64,000 bases of DNA, from the NCBI GenBank assembly GCA_016800925.1, contig JABCPU010000120.1, positions 62,001-126,000 of the forward strand. The letters run 5' to 3'. Under the pieces are notes generated by a model that did not search any database, had not been told where the DNA came from, and saw only the letters and a program-made list of their open reading frames with translations. This document shows, piece by piece, positions 42,723-58,500 of the stretch. A program made the position numbers and the translations under genes. Within the stretch, counting starts at the first letter, position 1. Each line of letters starts with the position of its first letter. The DNA comes from Suillus spraguei. Taxonomy: Eukaryota > Basidiomycota > Agaricomycetes > Boletales > Suillaceae.

Positions 42723-44448
42723 CTACACAGTACTGCTAGTTGATACATGTACACGCTCCTGAAAGACAATCGATCTTATGCTAGTTTCTGCGTCGGAGTT
42801 GGCCACAAGTTTGGCGTGATATTCTCGAACGCTAAGGATGAGGCGTGGTCCCAACACAAACATCTGGATGCCAGAAAAAATTTGAAGGATACCACCAAGT
42901 ATCTGAGCTGCGATAGAAGTTGAAGTCTATAGAAATGATCAACAGCGGTCACAACCAAATGTCAGCGACAGGTCGGCGTACCCAGGACTCTAGAGAGGCA
43001 TTGACAAACTGGAGGGAAGAGACGCCAGCAAAGCTAGGGCGTGCGGAACTTGAGCAGAGGAAGATAACCACATTCACATTACAAGCTCACCTTGCAAAAT
43101 AAAGCACGTGTGATTTTATCAGTACTCTGAAACAGTCCCCGATGACGATCGATCCTGTCGATGGGCCGAGTCGTCGCAGGTCACGGAAGTGTTTTACAGC
43201 AATCCAGACTGAAAGACACAATGCGAGGACCTCCCAAATGGTATTGAGCGCCCACGTCGTTGGGACTAGAAACTGGATATAATCCTCCTGTACATAATCG
43301 CACATATATGTGCCGGAGAGTATCAACTCCTCTGGTGTTTGTCAAATGAGCTGTGTTCGTCAAGTCAACAAGTAAAACTTACCCCCAATAGTATTCTTAG
43401 CTCCAATTGCCATCATTGCTCCGCAGGCGATGTTTATGGTCAGGAAGACAATAATCAGAAACCTAAGTATGATTCTAGATCTCTTATACATGGCATGCAA
43501 CCGAGCAATCGTGATGACTTGCATCGTGTTTCAGTCGAATTAGCAATATCCTGAGATATTGCAGCTTACCGCCTAGCATGGCAGCTACGACCACACTTGT
43601 CCCGTTTACAGTGTAGTATATAATGTCGCCTGAAACATCCAATCAGTGATCACCGTCGTGCCAGGATCAAATGCTCCACTCACACCTATCGAGCCATCAT
43701 GCTGAGCAGAGTTCGATGGTCAAAATTTCACTCACCCCTGCATATGAATGTATCCATCAGATAGGAATGAAATGGTTCCAGAATACCCACTATATCCGTA
43801 AGTGAGACAAATGATATAAATGCTGTGTGCCGCCAATCAGAAGAATTGAACACAGTGCATATTAGCAGACACATACGCAGAACGGTAATGCTGATAACAA
43901 GAAATTGGTTATTAGCACCGCACCAACTTGTTGGCCTCAACAACATACACTGAAAATGGTATTCCAATATATCTTGTCTAAAAAATTTTGGACTCGGAGT
44001 CAGCATAATTTTCCAGTCACACTATAGTATGATATAATACGAACTATCAGGTACAGCACAGTCATGAGAGACCAGCGTTGTCTCTGTCACGAATTCATTG
44101 TATTCTGTTGCTTTTCTTCTAATATGGGACTCTGTCACTCACCCAGATCAGTTCAATCTATAACACCATGAAGTTCTTAGTAAGTTGGCCACTCCGGCGA
44201 TACTAGCACCGACCTACCTCTTGTCCCAGTGTTAGCACTGTAATTATCATGAGAATATCAGCAATTTTTAAACACTGTTCTACCCACCCCAATCATATAC
44301 CACCACGACGCCGGCAGCAACTGCGAAACCACAAGTCAATGTTAGATCGAGACGTTACTGACTGACACAACGAACCTGCCCAATAGCTGCAGAGAAGATC
44401 AAAACTGAGTAACGGCCACCAACTGGGATCATTTGAGACTACGGTCAT
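42723..44448 (-). CDS. DUF6533-family membrane protein, copy A
   Basis: Reading leftward from ATG 44448: MTVVSNDPSWWPLLSFDLLC, intron, VAAGVVVVYDW, intron, VLTLGQE, IELIW, RQRWSLMTVLYLI and TRYIGIPFS. This splicing restores the family signature VYDWxLTxGQExELIWxxRWS. Later come CDYVQEDYIQFLVPTTWALN, EVLALCLSVWIAVKHFRDLR, GDCFRVLIKSHVLYFAR, MFVLGPRLILSVREYHAKLV and the end VHVSTSSTV with stop at 42723-42725. The stretch 43560-43990 could not be joined in frame by eye, so I cannot say whether the gene is functional. Function in the family is unknown; predicted in the membrane. Confidence 0.55.
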
Positions 44449-46831: not shown

Positions 46832-47979
46832 ATCTTCGAATTATCCCCGTACTGCATCCTTCTATCATCATGGTAGAGCACGCCAGTCATCAGGATGACC
46901 TTGCTGTTCATTGAGTTCCAGCAATGATACAACAAGAAATGAATTTGTCTACATAAACCTTCTCTTACATAAATATACTTTAAAACACCACAACCATGAC
47001 TTAAATAAATGCTACAGCGGATCCTTGACCAGATATCTCCTCCCTACAGGACACTCGAAAAGTATTTCCCTACACAGTACTGCTAGTTGATACATGTACA
47101 TGCTCCTGAAAGACAATCGATCTCATGCTAGTTTCTGCGTCGGACTTGGCCACAAGTTTGGCGTGATATTCTCGAACGCTAAGGATGAGGCGTGGTCCCA
47201 ACACAAACATCTGGACGCTTGCAAAAATTTGAAGGGGCCCATAGATTATCTGAGCTATGATAGAGGTTGATGTCTATAGAAATGATCAACAGTGGTCACA
47301 AGTAAATGTCAGCGACAGGTCTGCGTACAAAGACCTCTGGAGAGGCATAAACAAGCTGGAGGGAAGAGACGCCAGCAAAGCTAGGACGTGCGGAACTTGA
47401 GCAGAAAAAAATAACCATATTTACATTACAAGCTCACCTTGCAAAATAAAGCACGTGGGACTTTATCAGCACTCGGAAACAGTCACCGATGGTTGATCCT
47501 GTCGATGGGCTGAGCCGTCGCAGTTCACGGAAGTGTTTCGCAGCAATCCAAACTGAAAGACACAATGCGAGGGCTTCCCAAACGGTGTTGAGCATCCATA
47601 TCATCGAAACCAGAAGCTGGATGGATCCCCCAGAACTATAGTCGCACATATATATGCCAGAGAGTATCAGCTCCTCTAGTGTTTGTCCAATGAGCTGTGT
47701 TCGTCAAGTCAACAAGTAAAGCTTACCTCCTACAGTAGATTTGAGTGCTATCAGCCACCTGATGGTGGCATATGGATGTATCCCTTTGGCCTATAGGCCT
47801 AAAATAGGGATACATCGCCTGACATAGTTGTCCGCTCAGTGATACATCCGTGTAGCTTAAGTATCCTCGTGTCTAATATAGCAAGCAGTCACCAAGCAGT
47901 CACATCGAACGAATCTAGCTGCCGTTCGGATCAAACAAGTTTTATTTCACATCAAGGTACAGGAGCAAAGTCGTGCTAA

Positions 47980-50900
47980 TTAGTCTAAATCATCGAGATC
48001 TCCATGCGGGGGTGCATCAATAGAAGGACCTTCTTCTGCCGGTGCATTAGCCTCTGTGTCGTCCAGATTTTCGCTTACCAAAGCGGTCACATGGTGCCAC
48101 GATGCCCTGAATTTTGCAGACAGGGATCGACGGATGGCAGCCTGGCGTTTTGCGTACGCCACCAAGCCCTTGTTGTCCTCAGACTGCTCAGCCACACGCA
48201 GTGTGACCTGTGCTTCCCACCACTTAGTCTGCCAATCGAGAAACTCCAAGACGCGCCGCATCTCCTCCAAGAGCAGTTGGATTTCTTCAAACCACCGGTT
48301 GCATCTGGCCCTCGTTTTGCACCATTCGATGCATAGGGCTAGACGTGCTGTAAGCGATAAAAATAGAAGTAATCACTGATGACTTACAATCCTGAAACCT
48401 GTCACCGTTGTCCGAAGGAATTCCGTGTACATGCCAAATCCACAACATGATCGCCGTGCCTTGAGTGCGACCTCCAAGGTCCCCCATTGGCCGAAGGTCA
48501 GACTTCTTCAATGGCAGCAACTTGCGCTCCCAGCCTACATGGTCTAGTTGCCTTGACAGATGAGTGCATCAGGAAATTCGCACATTCCTTAACGTGCCCT
48601 CATCAGGAAATTCACACATTCCTTGACGTGCCCTTATGTGGACTTATTTACACTTAACTGCCTTGGTGAAATTGAATCTACTTGTCCAAAATTTCAATGT
48701 GAATGAATTCAGAAAAAAAAAGTTGAGATATATTAATATACATGTTTTATTGTATTTCGCACTCAAAAAATATAAGATATGCCAGGTGAATGATGTGAGA
48801 GAGAGCAAACAAGTTTTGAGATAAGTGAGTTAAGCTGATTAAGCATGTTAAGGAATGTGTGAATTTCCTGATGCTTATGCGGACTTATTTACACTTAACT
48901 GCCTTGGTGAAATTGAATCTACTTGTCCAAAATTTCAACGTGAATGAATTCAGAAAAAAAAAGTTGAGATATATTAATATACATGTTTTATTGTATTTCG
49001 CACTCAAAAAATATAAGATATGCCAGGTGAATGATGTGAGAGAGAGCAAACAAGTTTTGAGATAAGTGAGTTAAGCTGATTAAGCACGTCAAGGAATGTG
49101 TGAATTTCCTGATGTGAGAGCTCGCCGAGCACAAGAATACTTCTCGTGACTAAGAATGAGCCGATCCTCAACCGCTTGAATGGTTTTTTGGGCACGAGTG
49201 TTAAGACTTTGTCCGCGAATTTGTTGTGCCTTGAAGCGTAGAAGCTGGTGGCGGAGACGGATGTGAGAGTGGCATTCTTCGAGCACGTCGTTAGCCTGTG
49301 CCAAGCGTAACGACCACTCAACCTCGAGCAATTTCGCATCGCACGTTGTCAGATTACAGATAGAAGATGGAAGAAAGAGTGGGATATCCTCGGCTTTGAT
49401 AGAGTCGAGTTTAGCTTTTGGACAGCCGGTGGTTTCATCAACGGTGCCCTCGTCAGACACAGAGAGACCAGTGGCATGGAAGCGAGCAACGGAGGGCATG
49501 TACAGGACCTGTATGTCAATCCATGAATCAATGCGGCGTTGGAGTGCATTTCTGCGAATCAGAATCTTTGTTTGCTGATTGTTGGTTGAGTGTTGGGTGA
49601 GACCTGCATTATCTACCCGTAAACGTCGTCTACAAAGGAATAAGTAGGAAGTATGTAGCAGTCAATCCATCACTTACTGCGCATTCTCGATGTCCAAGCC
49701 TGTGCTAATTAGGATACTAGGCGTCACCTCTGAATGGAGGGAAATTGATGATCCTTCTTCCAAATCTTTCGCGTCTTGTTGAATGAGCGCTAAACGAACA
49801 GCGGCTTGAGACATTTCTAATATTCAATCAGTCATCAATCACGCTCTAAAATTTTGAACTTACCTTGACTTTGACTGTTGAAGGGGTTGGGTTTCGTGTG
49901 ATCGCTCTCCCAAGCAATGACTTCTTCAGTCCAGGCCGCGAGTGATGCAGCGCCCAACTCTGACTGTTCGATGGATCCCTCTAAGTCCGCGAGGGCATGG
50001 CGATGGTCCCGTTCAGCGTATGCAGCATCTGTTATTTTACGTAGTAGTGTTCGACCTTGTAAAGTAATCAATTCGCTGAATAAACATTTAAAACTCGAGA
50101 CTTACCAAGACCTGTCACCTTTTTCCAGTTCCAGTCCCCAAAATGGTCGTCTAAGACATCTCGACGTGTACCGGGTGCCATTTCCTTTGTGCTCACAGCA
50201 ACACGGTTTATATTGGCCCAACCGCGCTCCGGCGCTTCTCCATCGGTCCGTCCAACATAAGGAGACCAATTGAATGAAAAAGTCGTCTGACAGGCTGCAA
50301 CGTGTGCTGCAAGATGGAATTTCGGAACGAAAAACCTGAATTGTTGAGTGCTACTGGGATGAAGTCGTAAGGGAAGAGCAGTCGACACGCGATGCCACAG
50401 TTTTTTGTGCCACTGACATGCGATATCGTAGGAGAAATTGACGGATGGGATTGACGAAAAGCGTGAAAGCGCGGAGAAGACAATATAATCCATATTTAAG
50501 TATCTGCCCAAATGAAATCAAAAACCGATAACGTTCTTCCAGTGACACGAGTACTCACTTTTCCCCTTTTTGAAGATCCCCGACGCCATTCGCTAACCGC
50601 ATGTCGTGCCTCGCGCAAACTACAGTGCCGACACCCGTTGCTGCGAGTCCCTTGGAAGATTTCGTGTCCGCCATATTGACCGCGTTATGGCTAACACAAT
50701 TACTTTTCTAAGGCATTTAAATCAGCAACGGCTGAAAGCAATAATCATTCAACTCACCTCTTGTGCTAGACTTGCATTTTCTTGAAGGTACGCCTTGTAG
50801 TTACTTTCTTTGATGAAGTAACCCCACCCTTGGCTCAATCCAGGGTCCCTGTCATCGCTGGATACCAGTCGTCATTTCAGACGAAAGTTGGTGTCGATAG

Positions 50901-52216
50901 CCAAAAACAGTGAGTAGATCCATCTGTAGAATGTATTCAGATTACGGCTGAAAATAGGGAGGAGAGACAGTCAAATCTTACCGGTTCCCAGGTGAGACGT
51001 CCTCTAATGTCTCGGGCACATTTTTGCCAGGGTGAGGGCAGGCGGGGCACAGAACCACGATTTCTCCTTCTTTGGTAGCGCTAACTCCAGTGGGGTCATG
51101 CCCACGACCTGCCCGTTTTAGTGCCTTGAGGTTGCGCCACTCCGCCATCATTCGCAAAAAGACAGAATATTGATCCTATGAATTTCAATGATCAAAGGTA
51201 AATCAATCAGGATAAAGTTTATAGAGTACAAGTCACCTTGATAGACTTGACGCCTGTGTTGTCACTCCGACGTGCAACGCAGTGGTAAAACTCAAACGCG
51301 GATACCTTGGATTCAAATGAAAGCAAGTGGAAGTGTTCGAGAACAGTAAACGTAGCAGCTGTTCGTGGGTCGGTGGATGTTGCTGGGAACCAGCGAGCGC
51401 GCAGGATCTGTTTGTAGTGTGAGGATGCATACTCACAATGACAAAAGTCAAGAGCGACGTCATGGATTCCGTGAACATCGATGACAGTAAAATCATCGTC
51501 AAAGGCTGGTTTTGGTTTGCGGCAGCGCTGACCAGCACCGTGACCCAGCTGTATGCGGAGCCCCAGTTGCTTCAAGGTCGTTGGATGGAAATACCCTTCA
51601 TACCATCTCTGAATCAATGGCGTTAGTGGAAAGCACTGATGTCCATAAAAAAACATACCTTCAGCCGATGCAGGGGCATGTTCTGGTGGAGGTTCATAAC
51701 ACATGACTGGCAGTATAATGCGACAGAAAAGCAGTCTTCGCAACGAAATACTGCATTCGAATCGCCACAGTTATGGCACGAGTGACATGTGTCACCACGT
51801 CCTTCCAAGCGGATGAATTCGTCGAGATAAGTTTGACGTTCAGAGGTCCAAATACGAATGGGGTCATCCTGTTGAAAAAATCGAGGTCAGCTCTCAGTCT
51901 AGTTTTCAACATCCAAGCTTGCCTGCGGTCGTATTTCTTTTGAACCTGTGATGTTGCAAGGCTCTGTATCAAGGAATGAAGTGTCGTTCTGAGACTCGTT
52001 CCAAGGATCCTCGAAGAGGTTAGTGTTGACGCCAAGCTCGAGTTCTGGGGTAGCGCCAGCTGGTGTCCCATTAAGATATGTTGTCCGTAGATCGATCTGC
52101 CCAGTGGGATCAACAGCATATATTCTGTGGCGTTGGACGTTGCATGAAGATGCGCCAGTGGGATCTGAAAGCACATGTCGCACTAGGCGAGGTTTTTTGC
52201 TGGGACGACCAACCAT
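47980..52216 (-). pseudogene. KDZ (CxC2-type) transposase
   Basis: Reading leftward from ATG 52216: MVGRPSKKPRLVRHVLSDPT, then the CxC2 cysteine cluster CHSCHNCGDSNAVFRCEDCF with YCQSCVMNLHQNMPLHRLK, and the RWYEGYFHPTTLKQLG region. The KDZ core follows: LFLAIDTNFRLK, DPGLSQGWGYFI, VNFSYDIACQWHKKLW, FFVPKFHLAAHVAACQ and YVGRTDGEAPERGWANINRV, the Asp/Glu motifs of the catalytic domain. A helical C-terminal part ends PPHGDLDDLD. Many short introns. Two lesions: TGA after FRLK (complement of 50872-50874, where related proteins have Arg; CGA to TGA is likely), and a double MITE insertion at 48567-49114. KDZ transposases move DNA elements in basidiomycetes and are reported to travel with TET/JBP-like genes; none is visible in this copy. 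Confidence 0.82.
48567..49114. mobile_element. Two tandem MITEs inside the KDZ transposase gene
   Basis: Order: end, end, body, end, body, end. The ends are CATCAGGAAATTCRCACATT and AATGTGTGAATTTCCTGATG. The two bodies of about 225 bp (about 48640-48865 and 48880-49106) are nearly identical and both give the spurious ORF LHLTALVKLNLLVQNFNVNE. If the block is removed with a CA duplication, the transposase frame reads RRALTHLSRQLDHVGWERKL. Confidence 0.8.
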
Positions 52217-52430
52217 CAGTCACGGCACACTCTTATTATCAAGCCAAACATTGTTGAGCCACCATGATACGGTGAGCTCATTCATGATGTATCCAAGCGG
52301 ACAGAACCAAACTCAATGATGTATCAAAATGGACAATGAATGGACCTTTCAAATGATCCAACTGCACAACTTCTCGCCGGTCCCTTCGGCACAATCCTGT
52401 TGTACTCCAACTCCGAGTCGCTGAAAAGGT

Positions 52431-55400
52431 ATGGATCCTGAGATATCATTTGAGCTAGAGCTCACGTTGGACTCAGCCCAGATGTCAGATTGGCAACCGA
52501 CGCAAGAGCAACACACGTGGTTGATGCCACGCTTAACCGAATACACACTGCGAATTTCACACAGCAAGGCACCTGCCTTCTGGGCACGGTTGAATGATGA
52601 ATGGCTGCTGAAATGGCCCGAGCAGGCTTTGCTATGGCCTGAACGTCCAGCCGGGGATGCATTGACTGAAAGTGAAGAGAAGGAACTTTTTGCAGCTGAA
52701 AAGGCAAGGAAACAAGTCAGTCGACAGTTCATTCAATGATTGCAGTGGATGATTGACCATCAGATAGGACTTAAGAAGCTGGATGTTGTGGGCGTCGGTT
52801 CGTCCAAAACATGCTCGTACAATGTACGGTTGCTCAGGCTGTTGTGGGACCGCTGATGGATGTTGCATCGAATTTCAATTCCCTGATCTAAACCTATTAT
52901 GATTGTAAATCGTTACATTACCTATATATCTTGGTCTATGTAGTTTGAAGCAAGGCAATCCACCATGCAAAGACCGCGCATGCTGTGATCCCACATTTAA
53001 ATTCAAGCTTTGAGTTGAGAATTTCGGTGTTGGCAATATAGCCAGTAAAAGCCCTATAAAAGTCCAACAAGGTATGAACCAAATGTACTACGTGATTCTT
53101 AGCCACTTACAACCTTGAATCATGGGTCAGCCCAAACTCTATAACACTCCAGAAGAACGTCAAGAGGCCAAACAGATGCACCGACGGACACACTATGCAA
53201 GGTCAATCCACGACACTCGTCTTTTTATTAATGTATGTTACTCACTTTCAACCAGGAACAAAGCTGCAATCAGCGCGAGACTCAAAGTGAAGTATCGGGA
53301 AAACCAAGCACGAGATGCCCCAGTCTTCCCCTCAAAAAAAGTTAATGGGTGAGCGTATTGTTGATATCTATTCACCCGCTTATCTCAGAGGTCATTCATA
53401 GTGATATCAACCATCATATGATCGATCCTTACGACAATCAGGGCTCACAGCATGTTCACTGCCACCAGAAAACAAAGTCCGCGTGAGTTTTGATCTAATT
53501 TCATTCCCTTGCTGCGATCGAATATTCAATTATACAGCAACAAAAGGGATCGCTTATCAAGGTACTTAGATGGACCACCTGCACAGGTGATAGATGCTCT
53601 AGTACGCAACCACCTCGAGACTGGTGACTTAGATGGACTTCGAGGGACACTATCTGCATTAGAGGTGATTGTCGAGGAGTTGCACGATACAGAACAGCAT
53701 ATATTAGGACGCGAGGGCATGAGCCCAAAATTTCTTAAGGCATCTGATGCATCCAAGGAGGCAAAGGAAGTGATTCGTGCTGTGGAAGATGTTTTTTGTT
53801 GCGCATTGGTGTCAGGGATGGATCTTCACCAGCGATACACAGACAAAAAATTTATATTCCAGACGCTCTGGGACACTAAGTAGGTAGCTATAGTTAATGT
53901 AATTGAACAGTAAAAGATTGTACTCGCTACACGCCGACTTCATCATGGGGTCTGTGCGTGAGATATTGCCGCAATAGCAGGCTAAACTTCTTCGAGGGTT
54001 TGCTAATTAATTTCCCCCCTCACACGCATATAAGGGAAAGCGTATCGCTATCGTGAAGCAGCACACAGCAAGCCTCTATAGCGGAGAGACTGATGATGTT
54101 AAGGCGGAGGTACAGCGATACATCGAGAATCAGAAGACTCGGACGCAAAACGGTGATGAGGCGGGAATGTGGAGCGAAGTCGATTATGCAAGGTAATAGA
54201 ATTTACAGCCTATCGACTATGATGTGTATCAGCTTATGAGACCGCATAGAAATATAGAAAAACTTGCTGCTATCGCTAACAAGTTCCTCAAGGGGCTAGC
54301 GGAAGCCACTGGGTTCACATTCTCCCTCCTGGCGGGTGGTCCTTCTCCAGAGTCCAACGGCTCAATTGACGTCTATAGGCATGTGCATTAGTACTTATGA
54401 AATAGAGTTAAACACTGACCTAAATCAAAGTTTCCATGTGGGTCACACCAAGTTCGGAAACGACTTCAGCAAGGCATACCCTGAGTTTGAAACAGGTATC
54501 ATGTCTCCATTCAGAGACCATCTGTATCGAGTATATCGTGAGTTGCATGGCGCTGAAAAAACTATTGACTTACTCATTCAGAACAGCTGATCTGGTGGAC
54601 TCAAGGGCACGCCTAGGGAGTCCCGCGTCGTTGAACGAGGGTCCCACATCGTTGAACGAGCTTGAGGGTCCTGCATTGTTGAACGAGTTTGAGAGTCCCG
54701 TGTTGTCGAATGAGATTGAGATAGGAAGGGGTCTGGAGGATGTGTCCCAACCACGATCGGATATATCATCTGATGGCCATCACTCGGCATTACGCGGAAT
54801 GAAGGATGCTGACAAATCAGGTCAGACTTTTTCCGATACGTCCGCCAGTACTAGTGGTCTAGACACCCACCTGCTGTTTGATTCAGCTCAACAGAGCTCA
54901 CTTGATTTTTCTGAAGACTTGACTGGCGATTGGAATCTCGACGACACTTTTTGGATGGATCTTGCTGCCAAGGTTGCAGCATTTGAGGTGTTAGGTGGTG
55001 ACAATCCGGCCTTGCCGCACTTGCCTCCTTACCCACATACAGAGTCCACATCTTCCCCAACCCCACAATCACCCGTTCCAGCGCCGCTGCCGCATGTCCC
55101 ACAAACCATATGTCGCACATCCCCTGCTACCTCATCCCATATGGTCCCTGCATCTCCAGAGGTTCCAGTACAGGCTGCGCAGTTCCTGCACCATGATTCT
55201 CAGTCAGCGAGTCCTATGGAGCCACAATTACAGCCCTCACCCCCTCCCATTTCCACTTTACCTGGACTCCCTTTCAACACACCAGTCATCGCCAAGACAG
55301 CAATGCAACCCTTACTGCACCAGTCAAATGCGCCGTCCACAAGTGGTGTTGAACCCTCCCCTGATGGCAACGAACATTGTCATCGACGTAGGACTGGTCG

Positions 55401-55521
55401 GGTGTCCATTCCCTCCAAGCGCAATGCCGCCGCTAATAGCATTGGCAAAAATACACTGACTGTTTCCGGGAAGCATACCACGGCACAGGAATCTAGTACG
55501 TCCAGTCGCAAACAGAAGTAA
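52431..55521 (+). pseudogene. Accessory gene of the KDZ element (helical, Pro/Ser-rich tail)
   Basis: The N-part (52431-52739) has DWQPTQEQHTWLMPRLTEYT, FWARLNDEWLLKWPEQALLW and LTESEEKELFAAEKARKQ, a pattern common in Agaricomycete transposon-linked proteins. The frame hits TGA at 52737-52739 where the pattern expects Trp (FIQ-W-LQW). A later part (about 53985-54400) has HKGKRIAIVKQHTASLYSGE, AKFLKGLAEATGFTFSLL-like text and LLAGGPSPESNGSIDV, again typical of the same family, and VGHTKFGNDFSKAYPEFETG. A long Ser/Pro/Thr/Gln tail ends at 55521. The family is of unknown function. The middle is occupied by a second gene (53122-53883), so the gene is either interrupted or two genes overlap in my reading. 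Confidence 0.45.
53122..53883 (+). CDS. Small basic protein, MGQPKLYNTPEERQ family
   Basis: Exon 1 begins MGQPKLYNTPEERQEAKQMH and HRRTHYAR; after an intron, NKAAISARLKVKYRENQARD. A later exon (from about 53540) reads NKRDRLSRYLDGPPAQVIDA, NHLETGDLDGLRGTLSALEV and DLHQRYTDKKFIFQTLWDTK, then TAG at 53881-53883. The opening P-LY-T-EE...NK..I...K...YR is frequent in Agaricomycete genomes as small proteins of unknown role, often near transposons. The exon between 53345 and 53540 is uncertain. It lies between the two parts of the accessory gene. Confidence 0.5.
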
Positions 55522-56630
55522 GGTCCTACTTCCATCTGTGTCGCCTGGTTACTTACATTTTCAAACAGGAAACAAAAGGTATGATAGCGCATTGCATTTT
55601 GCCACTCTTCAGTGGACCATGGACTTTGTCCTCCGCATTTTTGTTACCTCATCAGGAAATTCACACATTCCTTGACGTGCCCTTATGCGGACTTATTTAC
55701 ACTTAACTGCCTTGGTGAAATTGAATCTACTTGTCCAAAATTTCAATGTGAATGAATTCAGAAAAAAAAAGTTGAGATATATTAATATACATGTTTTATT
55801 GTATTTCGCACTCAAAAAATATAAGATATGCCAGGTGAATGATGTGAGAGAGAGCAAACAAGTTTTGAGATAAGTGAGTTAAGCTGATTAAGCATGTTAA
55901 GGAATGTGTGAATTTCCTGATGCTCATTTTTTGTTACCTCTGATCTTTGTATATTCAGCGTAATTAGCTATTGAATAATACAATCATATATTTTCCATCA
56001 ATAACCAATGCACTGAGTCGCTTCACCACTTCAAAAATGCACTGAGTCACTTCGCCACTTCAAACTTCAATGCGCGCGTGCCATAAAAAAAGTCACATGA
56101 CAATAAGACTTGAGAAGGTTGAATGAACACCACAGCGGTCCATCTATTATATACTTACATCGCTGGATATCACTTGCTATAGCGAAAATCAGCTGGACGG
56201 GCAGTGACTCAGACTCAAAAAAGACACAGCGAAAGCAACCATGTCAGGATATCACGTGACACATGGACGATATTTGCAAAGTTCAACTCATTTTCGTCGT
56301 TGAAGTCTACCCCAGTCAGGTACAATGACCATCGCTTCTCCATCATTTTACTGGACCAAATCAACCCAGATCCATCTCATTGTGAGCCGCCGGATGAGAA
56401 GAACCTACCCAGATCGGTCAGGAAGCCCCCAGGAGGGGTGGAGGTGCAATATATGGCATTCAACCCCTTCAAATTAGGTTTAGGAAGCGCTGAGAATCCA
56501 TTTTGACGAGTCACACTTGGATGTATCCAGTGATACATCATGTTGGACAGTAGATAATGAGACTGGTTGATGTATACCTATTTTAGGGCTATAGTAGTAT
56601 ACTGATGTATCTATATAGCACTATGGGCTG
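55522..56630. other. KDZ right part: MITE, unknown ORF, right terminus
   Basis: After the accessory gene come a MITE (55650-55922), an ORF at 56204-56506 without family (MTQTQKRHSESNHVRISRDT...), and the right terminal inverted repeat (about 56570-56630). No further gene is seen. Confidence 0.5.
55650..55922. mobile_element. MITE, single copy of the 48.6-kb family
   Basis: CATCAGGAAATTCACACATT at the left end and AATGTGTGAATTTCCTGATG at the right; the body is almost identical to both copies at 48.6-49.1 kb, so the insertions are recent. The flanks repeat CATTTTTGTTACCTC (left) and CATTTTTTGTTACCTC (right). Confidence 0.8.
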
Positions 56631-57654
56631 TATCAGCGCGATTGATCCACAGGCAATGTTTGTGGCCAGGAAGATAATAACCAGAACGATAAGTATGTTT
56701 CTAGATCTCTGATACATGGCATGCAACCGAGCAATCATGATGACTTTACATCATGTTTTAGTCGAGTCAATATCACTGAGGTATTGCAGCTCACCGCCCA
56801 GCATGGCAGCTACGACCACATTTGTCCCATTTACAGCGTAGTTCATAATGTTGCCTGAAACACTATCAGTGATCGCCTTTGTACTAGGATAAAATGCTCC
56901 ACTCACATCTATGAGTCATTATGTTAAGCCAAGTTTAGTGGTCAAAATCTCACTCGCTCCTGCATATTATAAATGTATTCATTGGATAGGAATGAGATGG
57001 TTGCAAAATACTCACTGTATCTGTCAGTGAGACCGATGGAATGTATTCTGTGTGCCGCCAGTCAGAAGAATCGAACACAGTGCATATGAGACATACCCAG
57101 AAGAGTGATGCTGATCATGAGAAATGGGCTATTAGCACAGCACCAATTTGTTGGCCTCAAGAACATACATAGAATATGGTATTCCGATATATCGTGTCTA
57201 GAATATTTTGGAATCAGCACAACTTGCCTGTTACACTGTAGTATGACATAAGGTACGAACTATCATGTACAGCACGGTCATGAGAGACCAGCGTTGTCTC
57301 TGTCGCAAATTCATTGTATTCTGTTTCTTGTCTTCTAAGATGGGACTGTCACTCACCCAGATCAGTTCAATCTGTAACACCATTCTTAGCGAGTTGACTA
57401 CCCCGGCGATAGCACCGACCTACCTCTTGTCCTAGTGTCAGCACTGAAATTATCATGAGAATTTCAGTGGTTTTTGAACACTGTTCGACGCACCCCAATC
57501 ATATACCACCACAACACCGGTGGCAACTGCGAAACCACAAGTCAATGTTAAATCGAGATGTCATTAACTGATACAACCAACCCATCCAATAACTGTAAAA
57601 AATATCAGAACTGATAAATGGCCACAAACTGGGATCATTTGAGACTACGGTCAT

Positions 57655-58500
57655 ATTCGAGGGATGAGTGTGAACGAGTGGGGGGCGTTGGTGGTGTATA
57701 ACAATAGTGTTCGTGCTAGATATACCACCATTGAGCGCTTCTATCGCCAAAATCGGTATGATGGAGATGGATATTTGATCCCTCAAGACCCACCAGTATT
57801 GCATTGTGAAAGAGCGATTAGATGAAAGTATACGTATGTTGATTTGCAGACTGGCGATGTAGTATGAAGCACGCCGCCAGTTGAACATCAGGAACGTTCC
57901 AGTTGGTGATGTCGGTAACTCATTTCCAGCATCATTGTTGCAGCATTCTTACTGCAAGCTTGCATAAACAGAGGAGTTCTGTATAAAATCATGTATTCAT
58001 CATTCTAACACAGGTCGACGCATGATGTGATCGAAAACAAGCATGTGCGCTCTCTTCTGCCAAGCTCAAGGCATAACCATGACAGCTCCTCCGATTGCTA
58101 TTATAGAACAAGGGCCATTCTACAGCATATCACCACAGGAGCCAGATAGGAGACCGTGACACAGTGGGTCGAAGCGGAGCGAATATGACTCACTTAATCT
58201 GTTGCCTGGTTTGCTTAAATCGATAAACAAAGATATGTTTAGCTTCATTTTTAAAGCACGAAATGGAACATTTATTGTGCCACTGGCAGCCGCGTCAGCG
58301 GGCATAGCAGCGAGGGAATACAATATAAAGTGTACCATGTGGCAGATACATCCCGACACATGCTGTATGATTAATATCTGATGCCATCCACACTAAGCGA
58401 AAGAGAACTTGTGGGAGATAAGAAGCCGGTAACTTACGTGCAAGAATCCCAATTTCCAATTGTGCAGGTTTGTGAATTGATGACCATATTGTTTCAGTGA
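57655..58500 (-). repeat. Copy B upstream flank and repeat block X, copy 2
   Basis: From 57950 it matches 44760-45334 (CTTGCATAAACAGAGGAGTT..., CATGTGCGCTCT). The short leftward frame CHMVHFILYSLAAMPADAAA corresponds to CHMVRLVLYPLSAMPADTAA in copy 1; frameshifts have broken it. Confidence 0.6.

What the first reader, a model, noticed from the sequence alone, without database searches (positions are those of the whole stretch)
47755..56630. Complete but dead KDZ transposon with ends fixed by a duplicated host gene
Copy A of the DUF6533 gene supplies an empty site. Copy B is interrupted at the homologous point, and joining its flanks with one TATCAG gives the same length as copy A (52 bp compared). 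Together with imperfect 60-bp inverted ends this gives element limits and target duplication for a family whose termini are rarely defined at the base level. Seen: flanks, TATCAG, inverted ends. Known: the KDZ family. Inferred: 6-bp target duplication.
Basis: partly seen in the sequence, partly recalled or inferred. Interest (0 to 1): 0.85.

Follow-up and report, generated by a model that had tools for sequence, protein, structure and literature searches.

The report
Mushroom KDZ transposon with exact ends
This is an 8.9-kb jumping gene of a known fungal family, sitting broken inside a duplicated mushroom gene; its exact ends and its 7-letter insertion scar are fixed by sister copies and by uninterrupted versions of the insertion sites.

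Summary
The element is 47756-56630 (8875 bp, CACCTG...GGGCTG), flanked by a 7-bp repeat, TATCAGC, not a 6-bp TATCAG. Five copies with these ends were found in the genome, 1.0-1.4% apart. Four insertions allow only a 7-bp duplication; the fifth lies in a CT run and fits 7 by length. One of the four and the fifth appear only after exchanging the flanks of two copies (C505, C821): a reciprocal crossover or an assembly chimera. All five have uninterrupted counterparts in the assembly. Copy A matches in length only; the real empty site is on contig C780. The element encodes a CxC2-KDZ transposase; no TET/JBP gene was found in it. The window copy is broken: a private stop in the KDZ domain, nested Plavaka-like MITEs in a transposase exon, a 610-bp deletion. 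7-bp duplications with CA..TG ends are already published for Kyakuja (Kojima 2025), so this is a new member of a known kind, probably a TET-less Kyakuja; its weakly inverted ends differ from the published 'no TIRs'. A lead: 181 of 211 private substitutions are CpG transitions, against 25 of 44 in a TET-carrying KDZ family of the same genome.

The parts
47756..56630 (-). KDZ transposon, window copy, 8875 bp, CACCTG...GGGCTG; the transposase reads on the minus strand
   Evidence: five copies share both ends; empty site on contig C780
47749..47755 (.). left target-site duplication TATCAGC
56631..56637 (.). right target-site duplication TATCAGC
47791..47816 (.). left arm of the best inverted block (26 nt, 92%)
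   Evidence: end-to-end test
56569..56594 (.). right arm of the best inverted block
47980..52216 (-). transposase gene, several exons, about 1000 aa by comparison with Suillus relatives (exon limits are my reading of the frames)
   Evidence: exon frames; relatives
51252..51575 (-). CxC2 cysteine cluster domain
   Evidence: PF18803, E 1.9e-46
50128..50916 (-). KDZ transposase domain, read across introns
   Evidence: PF18758 at G000:C225:112128-112916; exon hit E 1.9e-40
50872..50874 (-). in-frame TGA inside the KDZ domain, not shared at this codon by the other four copies
48567..49114 (.). Plavaka-like MITE with TG/TG 2-bp duplication, inserted in a transposase exon, itself hit by a second MITE; absent at this site from the other four copies
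48601..48873 (.). 273-bp MITE nested in the previous one, CT/CT duplication
55650..55922 (.). third 273-bp MITE, CT/CT duplication; absent at this site from the other four copies
54033..54035 (.). junction of a 610-bp deletion found only in the window copy; it appears to remove the start of a plus-strand accessory gene
52425..55521 (+). plus-strand accessory open frames (52425-52739, 53494-53883, 54300-54590, 54424-55521), no Pfam family above its cut-off
44040..44320 (-). copy A of the host gene: DUF6533 domain over four short exons
47434..47748 (-). copy B of the host gene, part on the left of the element; one frame runs open across the joined insertion point, so an exon is probably hit
56638..57680 (-). 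copy B of the host gene, part on the right of the element (outer limit approximate)
   Evidence: similarity to copy A read from the sequence and joined frame

Best explanation
The feature is a DNA transposon of the KDZ group, most likely a TET-less Kyakuja, in a Suillus-like bolete (host inferred). Its CxC2-KDZ transposase acted on ends 5'-CA..TG-3' and joined the element to a staggered cut of 7 bp, giving 7-bp target duplications (shown by the insertions and their empty sites; the cut-and-join chemistry is inferred from the family). It landed in an exon of one copy of a duplicated DUF6533 gene. The element itself was later hit by a Plavaka-type MITE, into which a second one inserted, and by a third, lost 610 bp and gained a stop codon, so this copy cannot make an intact transposase. 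Most point changes private to one copy are CpG transitions, as expected from deamination of methylated cytosine (cause inferred).
For: Same two ends in the 5 copies found. 7-bp duplications: TATCAGC (window), GTATGCC (C753), CCTTCAG (C614) as assembled; AACTGAT and TCTCTCT after exchanging the flanks of C505 and C821. For the first four 7 is the only repeat length of 1-15 that fits. Empty sites: C780, 3054 bp at 99.1%, one mismatch in the heptamer; C610, 88 of 88 bp, 28 of them left of the junction, and C25, 119 of 120; C320, 910 bp at 99.0%. For the fifth, paralogues of the repeat it landed in, reading TCACTCT: of five loci compared, three cross the site gaplessly with a 7-bp join, one (L062) with a 2-bp difference beside it, one (L061) matches 13 bp beyond the site and stops. 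Domains CxC2 and KDZ. Ends and 7-bp TSD as published for Kyakuja. Best relatives are Suillus CxC2-KDZ proteins: 81% identity over the whole query, 89% over 83% of it. 181 of 211 private substitutions are CpG transitions.
Against: The two published Laccaria Kyakuja families have no TIRs, while these ends show weak inverted similarity. The transposase was not placed on a tree with labelled Kyakuja, Dileera and Zisupton proteins; by eye its KDZ domain differs clearly from that of the TET+ family in the same genome. Two more distant relatives of the right end (C429, C402; 71%) gave no convincing 7-bp repeat in the stretches held. Two of five duplications need a swap of flanks, and the one in the CT run would also fit 1, 3, 5 or 9 bp. 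The empty-site heptamers on C780 and in the repeat paralogues each differ by one base.
Confidence: 0.88

Rival explanations
1. The duplication is 6 bp (TATCAG) and the element starts at 47755.
For: TATCAG flanks both ends of the window copy.
Against: The seventh base is also repeated, and 7 is the only repeat length that fits in the window, C753, C614 and the C505-left/C821-right pair when the element starts at CACCTG; their empty sites hold one 7-mer. In C614 the base before CACCTG is G, not C.
Confidence: 0.03
2. It is a Zisupton- or Dileera-type KDZ element rather than Kyakuja.
For: Zisupton has TIRs and these ends are weakly inverted; the KDZ domain is by eye unlike that of the TET+ KDZ family in this genome.
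Against: Published duplications are 8 bp for Zisupton and for the Dileera family Zisupton-1_PGr; here four insertions fit only 7 bp and the fifth fits 7 but not 8.
Confidence: 0.2
3. C505 and C821 are not crossed copies but insertions without duplications.
For: As assembled, C821 shows no repeat at its two flanks and C505 only a single shared base.
Against: C505-left with C821-right gives a perfect 7-mer and C821-left with C505-right a CT-run repeat that fits 7, and both joined sites exist uninterrupted elsewhere (C320, 910 bp; repeat paralogues).
Confidence: 0.03

Closest known systems
Kyakuja DNA transposons of Agaricomycetes (Kojima 2025, PMC12730594)
   Same: KDZ transposase, 7-bp target duplications, 5'-CA..TG-3' ends, agaricomycete host
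   Different: No TET/JBP match found in the five copies; ends show weak inverted similarity, whereas the two Laccaria families are described as without TIRs
Zisupton (KDZ)
   Same: Same transposase superfamily; inverted ends
   Different: 8-bp duplications
Dileera (KDZ, rust fungi)
   Same: Same transposase superfamily
   Different: 8-bp duplications in the family described, TET+ families in rusts
PlavakaB elements
   Same: The 273-bp MITEs inside the element have CATCA..TGATG ends and 2-bp duplications
   Different: The MITEs are too short (273 bp) to encode a transposase

Membership tests
KDZ superfamily | KDZ transposase domain (PF18758) | tested here: met
   E 1.9e-40 on one exon; whole domain listed at 159 bits
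KDZ superfamily | N-terminal cysteine cluster (CxC) | tested here: met
   CxC2 PF18803, E 1.9e-46
Kyakuja | 7-bp target duplication | tested here: met
   4 of 5 insertions fit only 7 bp, one of them after exchanging flanks; the fifth, also after the exchange, lies in a CT run and fits 7 among other odd lengths, with 7 supported by gapless paralogues
Kyakuja | 5'-CA..TG-3' termini | tested here: met
   CACCTG...GGGCTG
Kyakuja | no TIRs (reported for two Laccaria families; descriptive rather than defining) | tested here: inconclusive
   45 of 64 gapped but only 28 of 62 ungapped positions match
Kyakuja | transposase groups with Kyakuja in a tree | not tested
Zisupton | 8-bp target duplication | tested here: not met
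   none of the five insertions fits 8 bp
Dileera | 8-bp target duplication | tested here: not met
   none of the five insertions fits 8 bp; published value
TET+ KDZ | TET/JBP gene (PF12851) inside the element | tested here: not met
   150 matches (150 of 197 candidates scored), none inside the five copies; no Tet_JBP hit among 10 frames of the window copy or 7 frames of C821
PlavakaB (for the MITEs) | CATCA..TGATG ends and 2- or 3-bp duplications | tested here: met
   six intact 273-bp copies found by pattern in the window and four fetched regions plus the outer interrupted one: 7 of 7 with a 2-bp repeat

The most novel reading that the evidence does not exclude
In one genome, a TET-less KDZ family decays at CpG sites about two to three and a half times faster, relative to its other changes, than a TET-carrying KDZ family (rate ratios 53, or 33-57 in triples of copies, against 16), because the TET/JBP enzyme spares its own element from methylation-driven mutation. 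Private CpG transitions: 181 of 211 against 25 of 44 (33 of 78 with the repeat-rich part included); Fisher p 7e-5.
Probability: 0.15. Interest if true: 0.65.

Novelty: new member of a known kind. Interest (0 to 1): 0.36.

Why it matters
It gives base-exact ends and matched empty sites for a KDZ family without a TET gene, which extends the published 7-bp rule beyond TET+ families and gives annotators a clean test. Together with the TET-carrying KDZ elements of the same genome it offers an internal comparison for whether TET/JBP genes protect transposons from methylation-driven decay.

Tried and rejected
Copy A as empty site: same length, but 23 of 40 central positions and a different heptamer, so dropped as evidence for the duplication.

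Two relatives of the right end at 71% (C429, C402) were searched for a matching left flank followed by CA. C429: none for 8-, 7- or 6-mers in the 12 kb held. C402 (19.8 kb held): no 8-mer, two 7-mers (7.0 and 17.4 kb away) and one 6-mer, none supported by anything else. Not used.

TET+ KDZ family (L055-L057): the left end reads CACATATT. The right end lies beyond the held stretch and could not be fetched, so its duplication length was not tested.

TET and CpG decay: the contrast is significant for the five TET-less copies and for all ten triples of them against the 44-site set (p 6e-5 to 6e-3). But a third, unidentified repeat lies in between (68 of 94; against TET+ p 0.08, against the TET-less family p 0.007; L059, one of its six fetched loci, was left out because it aligns over 1.5 kb only), and the TET+ family has the lower CpG observed/expected ratio (0.67 against 0.91), which runs against simple protection. 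The 3-kb flank pair gave 5 of 24. Each TET class is one family, with five and three copies. So it stays a lead. No flanking-base preference at CpG (chi-square p 0.21), so no TCG signature as reported for rusts.

The second comparison between C225 and C780 (copy A regions) gave 187 differences in 3214 bp, far more than the 24 in 3050 bp at the insertion site, so I call C780 an allele or a recent duplicate, not a proven allele.

C614 site: the nearest long matches to its left flank (C544, C382) stop about 100 bp before the site; the empty site used is C25, whose match covers that last stretch.

Not done: structure prediction, a transposase tree, and any use of viral, phage or plasmid collections.
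Full report
What is there. The window carries a KDZ DNA transposon at 47756-56630 (8875 bp). The flanking direct repeat is TATCAGC, 7 bp, at 47749-47755 and 56631-56637.

Copies. A search of the whole assembly (86.2 Mb, 1256 contigs) with the left end gave 5 matches of 5 candidates. With the right end it gave 7 of 7: the same five copies at 99-100% and two relatives at 71%. The tool calls such counts lower bounds. All five copies begin CACCTG and end GGGCTG. Lengths are 8875 (window), 18028 (C753), 10210 (C614), 8659 (C821) and 8654 (C505); the window copy and the two long ones hold nested insertions. Pairwise differences are 1.04-1.43% after the nested insertions are set aside.

Target duplications. 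Window TATCAGC, C753 GTATGCC and C614 CCTTCAG are perfect 7-bp repeats, and no other length from 1 to 15 fits. C821 shows none as assembled and C505 a single shared base. But the left flank of C505 and the right flank of C821 share AACTGAT (only 7 fits), and the left flank of C821 and the right flank of C505 share TCTCTCT, inside a CT run where 1, 3, 5, 7 or 9 would fit. So these are two insertions whose halves have been exchanged, by a real crossover between two 8.66-kb copies or by the assembler; the data here cannot tell which. The AACTGAT site lies in a relative of the window's host gene: the flank matches it at 79% over 468 bp.

Empty sites. Window: contig C780 matches the joined flanks over 3054 bp at 99.1%, with TATCACC once. 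C753: contig C610, 88 of 88 bp, 28 of them on the left. C614: contig C25, 119 of 120. AACTGAT: contig C320, 910 bp across the junction at 99.0%. TCTCTCT: the element landed in another repeat, whose other copies read TCACTCT. Of five paralogous loci compared, three run across the site gaplessly with a 7-bp join, one (L062) with a 2-bp length difference beside it, and one (L061) matches for 13 bp beyond the site and then stops. So four insertions show exactly 7 bp and the fifth agrees with it. The window's copy A is a diverged paralogue: equal length, but 51 of 74 positions and AATTGCC at the site.

Ends. With gaps the outer 62 bases are inverted repeats at 45 of 64 columns, a score that none of 2000 shuffles and none of 2000 internal pairs reached; without gaps only 28 of 62 match. 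The best block is 26 nt at 92%, about 36 nt inside each end.

Genes. On the minus strand lies a transposase of several exons with CxC2 (E 1.9e-46) and KDZ (E 1.9e-40 on one exon). On the plus strand are accessory frames without a Pfam family above its cut-off. No TET/JBP match lies in any of the five copies, although the genome has 150 matches (150 of 197 candidates scored). A search with a conceptual protein of 633 residues found 1986 proteins at E up to 1e-3 among 7992 scored candidates; the first 27 of the 120 listed are Suillus, with 81% identity over the whole query for the best hit and 89% over 83% of it for the second. The host is therefore probably Suillus or a near relative (inference).

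Why this copy is broken. An in-frame TGA at 50872-50874 lies in the KDZ domain and is not shared at that codon by the other four copies. A MITE of the Plavaka type, itself interrupted by a second, sits in a C-terminal transposase exon (48567-49114), and a third lies at 55650-55922; none is at these sites in the other copies. A 610-bp deletion near 54034 appears to remove the start of an accessory gene. The other four copies have lesions of their own, some of them single-base gaps that may be sequencing errors. 'Dead' is thus fair for this copy; the close similarity of the copies and the empty counterparts of the insertions point to recent activity of the family (inference).

Mutation pattern. 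Of 211 substitutions private to one of the five copies, 181 are CpG to TpG or CpA; 22 variable sites shared by two or more copies were left out. An earlier count that took the neighbouring base from one copy instead of the majority gave 169. There is no flanking-base preference (p 0.21). In a TET-carrying KDZ family of the same genome (three copies) the count is 25 of 44 without, and 33 of 78 with, its repeat-rich part. A third repeat gives 68 of 94, and the insertion-site flank 5 of 24 (pairwise and unpolarised). The contrast fits protection by TET, but the middle value of the third repeat (not distinct from TET+, p 0.08) and the lower CpG content of the TET+ family speak against a simple reading. 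[quoted passage not shown] the CpG bias here need be no more than ordinary deamination of methylated CpG.

Known and new. Of Kojima 2025 (PMC12730594) I read the abstract, sections 3.1.1, 3.2 and 4.2, the figure legends and search passages. It reports 7-bp TSDs and 5'-CA..TG-3' termini without TIRs for two TET+ Kyakuja families, 8 bp for Zisupton and for a Dileera family, and CATCA..TGATG ends with 2- or 3-bp TSDs for PlavakaB. The element matches Kyakuja on both end features. It differs in lacking a recognisable TET gene and in its weak terminal inversion. 68 papers hold at least one of the three KDZ names (40 listed), six hold 'KDZ transpos*', and none holds Suillus, transpos* and Kyakuja together; of all these I opened only Kojima 2025. 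Two papers on agaricomycetes in the listing (PMC6980582, PMC4014442) hold three of the four search terms on repeat mutation in their abstracts; I did not open them. The finding is a good, ordinary member of a known group with unusually complete evidence for its ends.

Noticed in passing
G000:C505:29470-38127 and C821:17886-26544 (L019, L020, L017, L018): Two copies of the transposon carry exchanged flanks: a reciprocal crossover between dispersed copies or an assembly chimera.
   Followed up: partly
48567-49114, 48601-48873, 55650-55922: 273-bp MITE family with CATCAGG..CCTGATG ends and 2-bp duplications, one nested in another; further copies in and beside the C753 element and beside the C505 element.
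   Followed up: yes
L015, L016 (C614 copy): Two ~774-bp insertions in opposite orientation, 97.4% alike, each with about 5 bp of overlap at its target, inside the C614 copy; perhaps solo LTRs.
   Followed up: partly
L013, L014 (C753 copy): An 8.8-kb insertion with a ~5-bp target overlap inside the C753 copy, perhaps an LTR retrotransposon.
   Followed up: no
L055, L056, L057: A TET-carrying KDZ family whose left end reads CACATATT; its right end was not reached.
   Followed up: partly
47200-47755 and relatives: The interrupted host gene belongs to a large, partly clustered family (171 candidates, 40 scored and matched); two of the five transposon insertions hit members of it.
   Followed up: partly
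C225 versus C780 (L034, L035, L026): The region of copy A differs by 5.8% between the two contigs while the insertion site differs by 0.8%: uneven divergence in this gene cluster.
   Followed up: no
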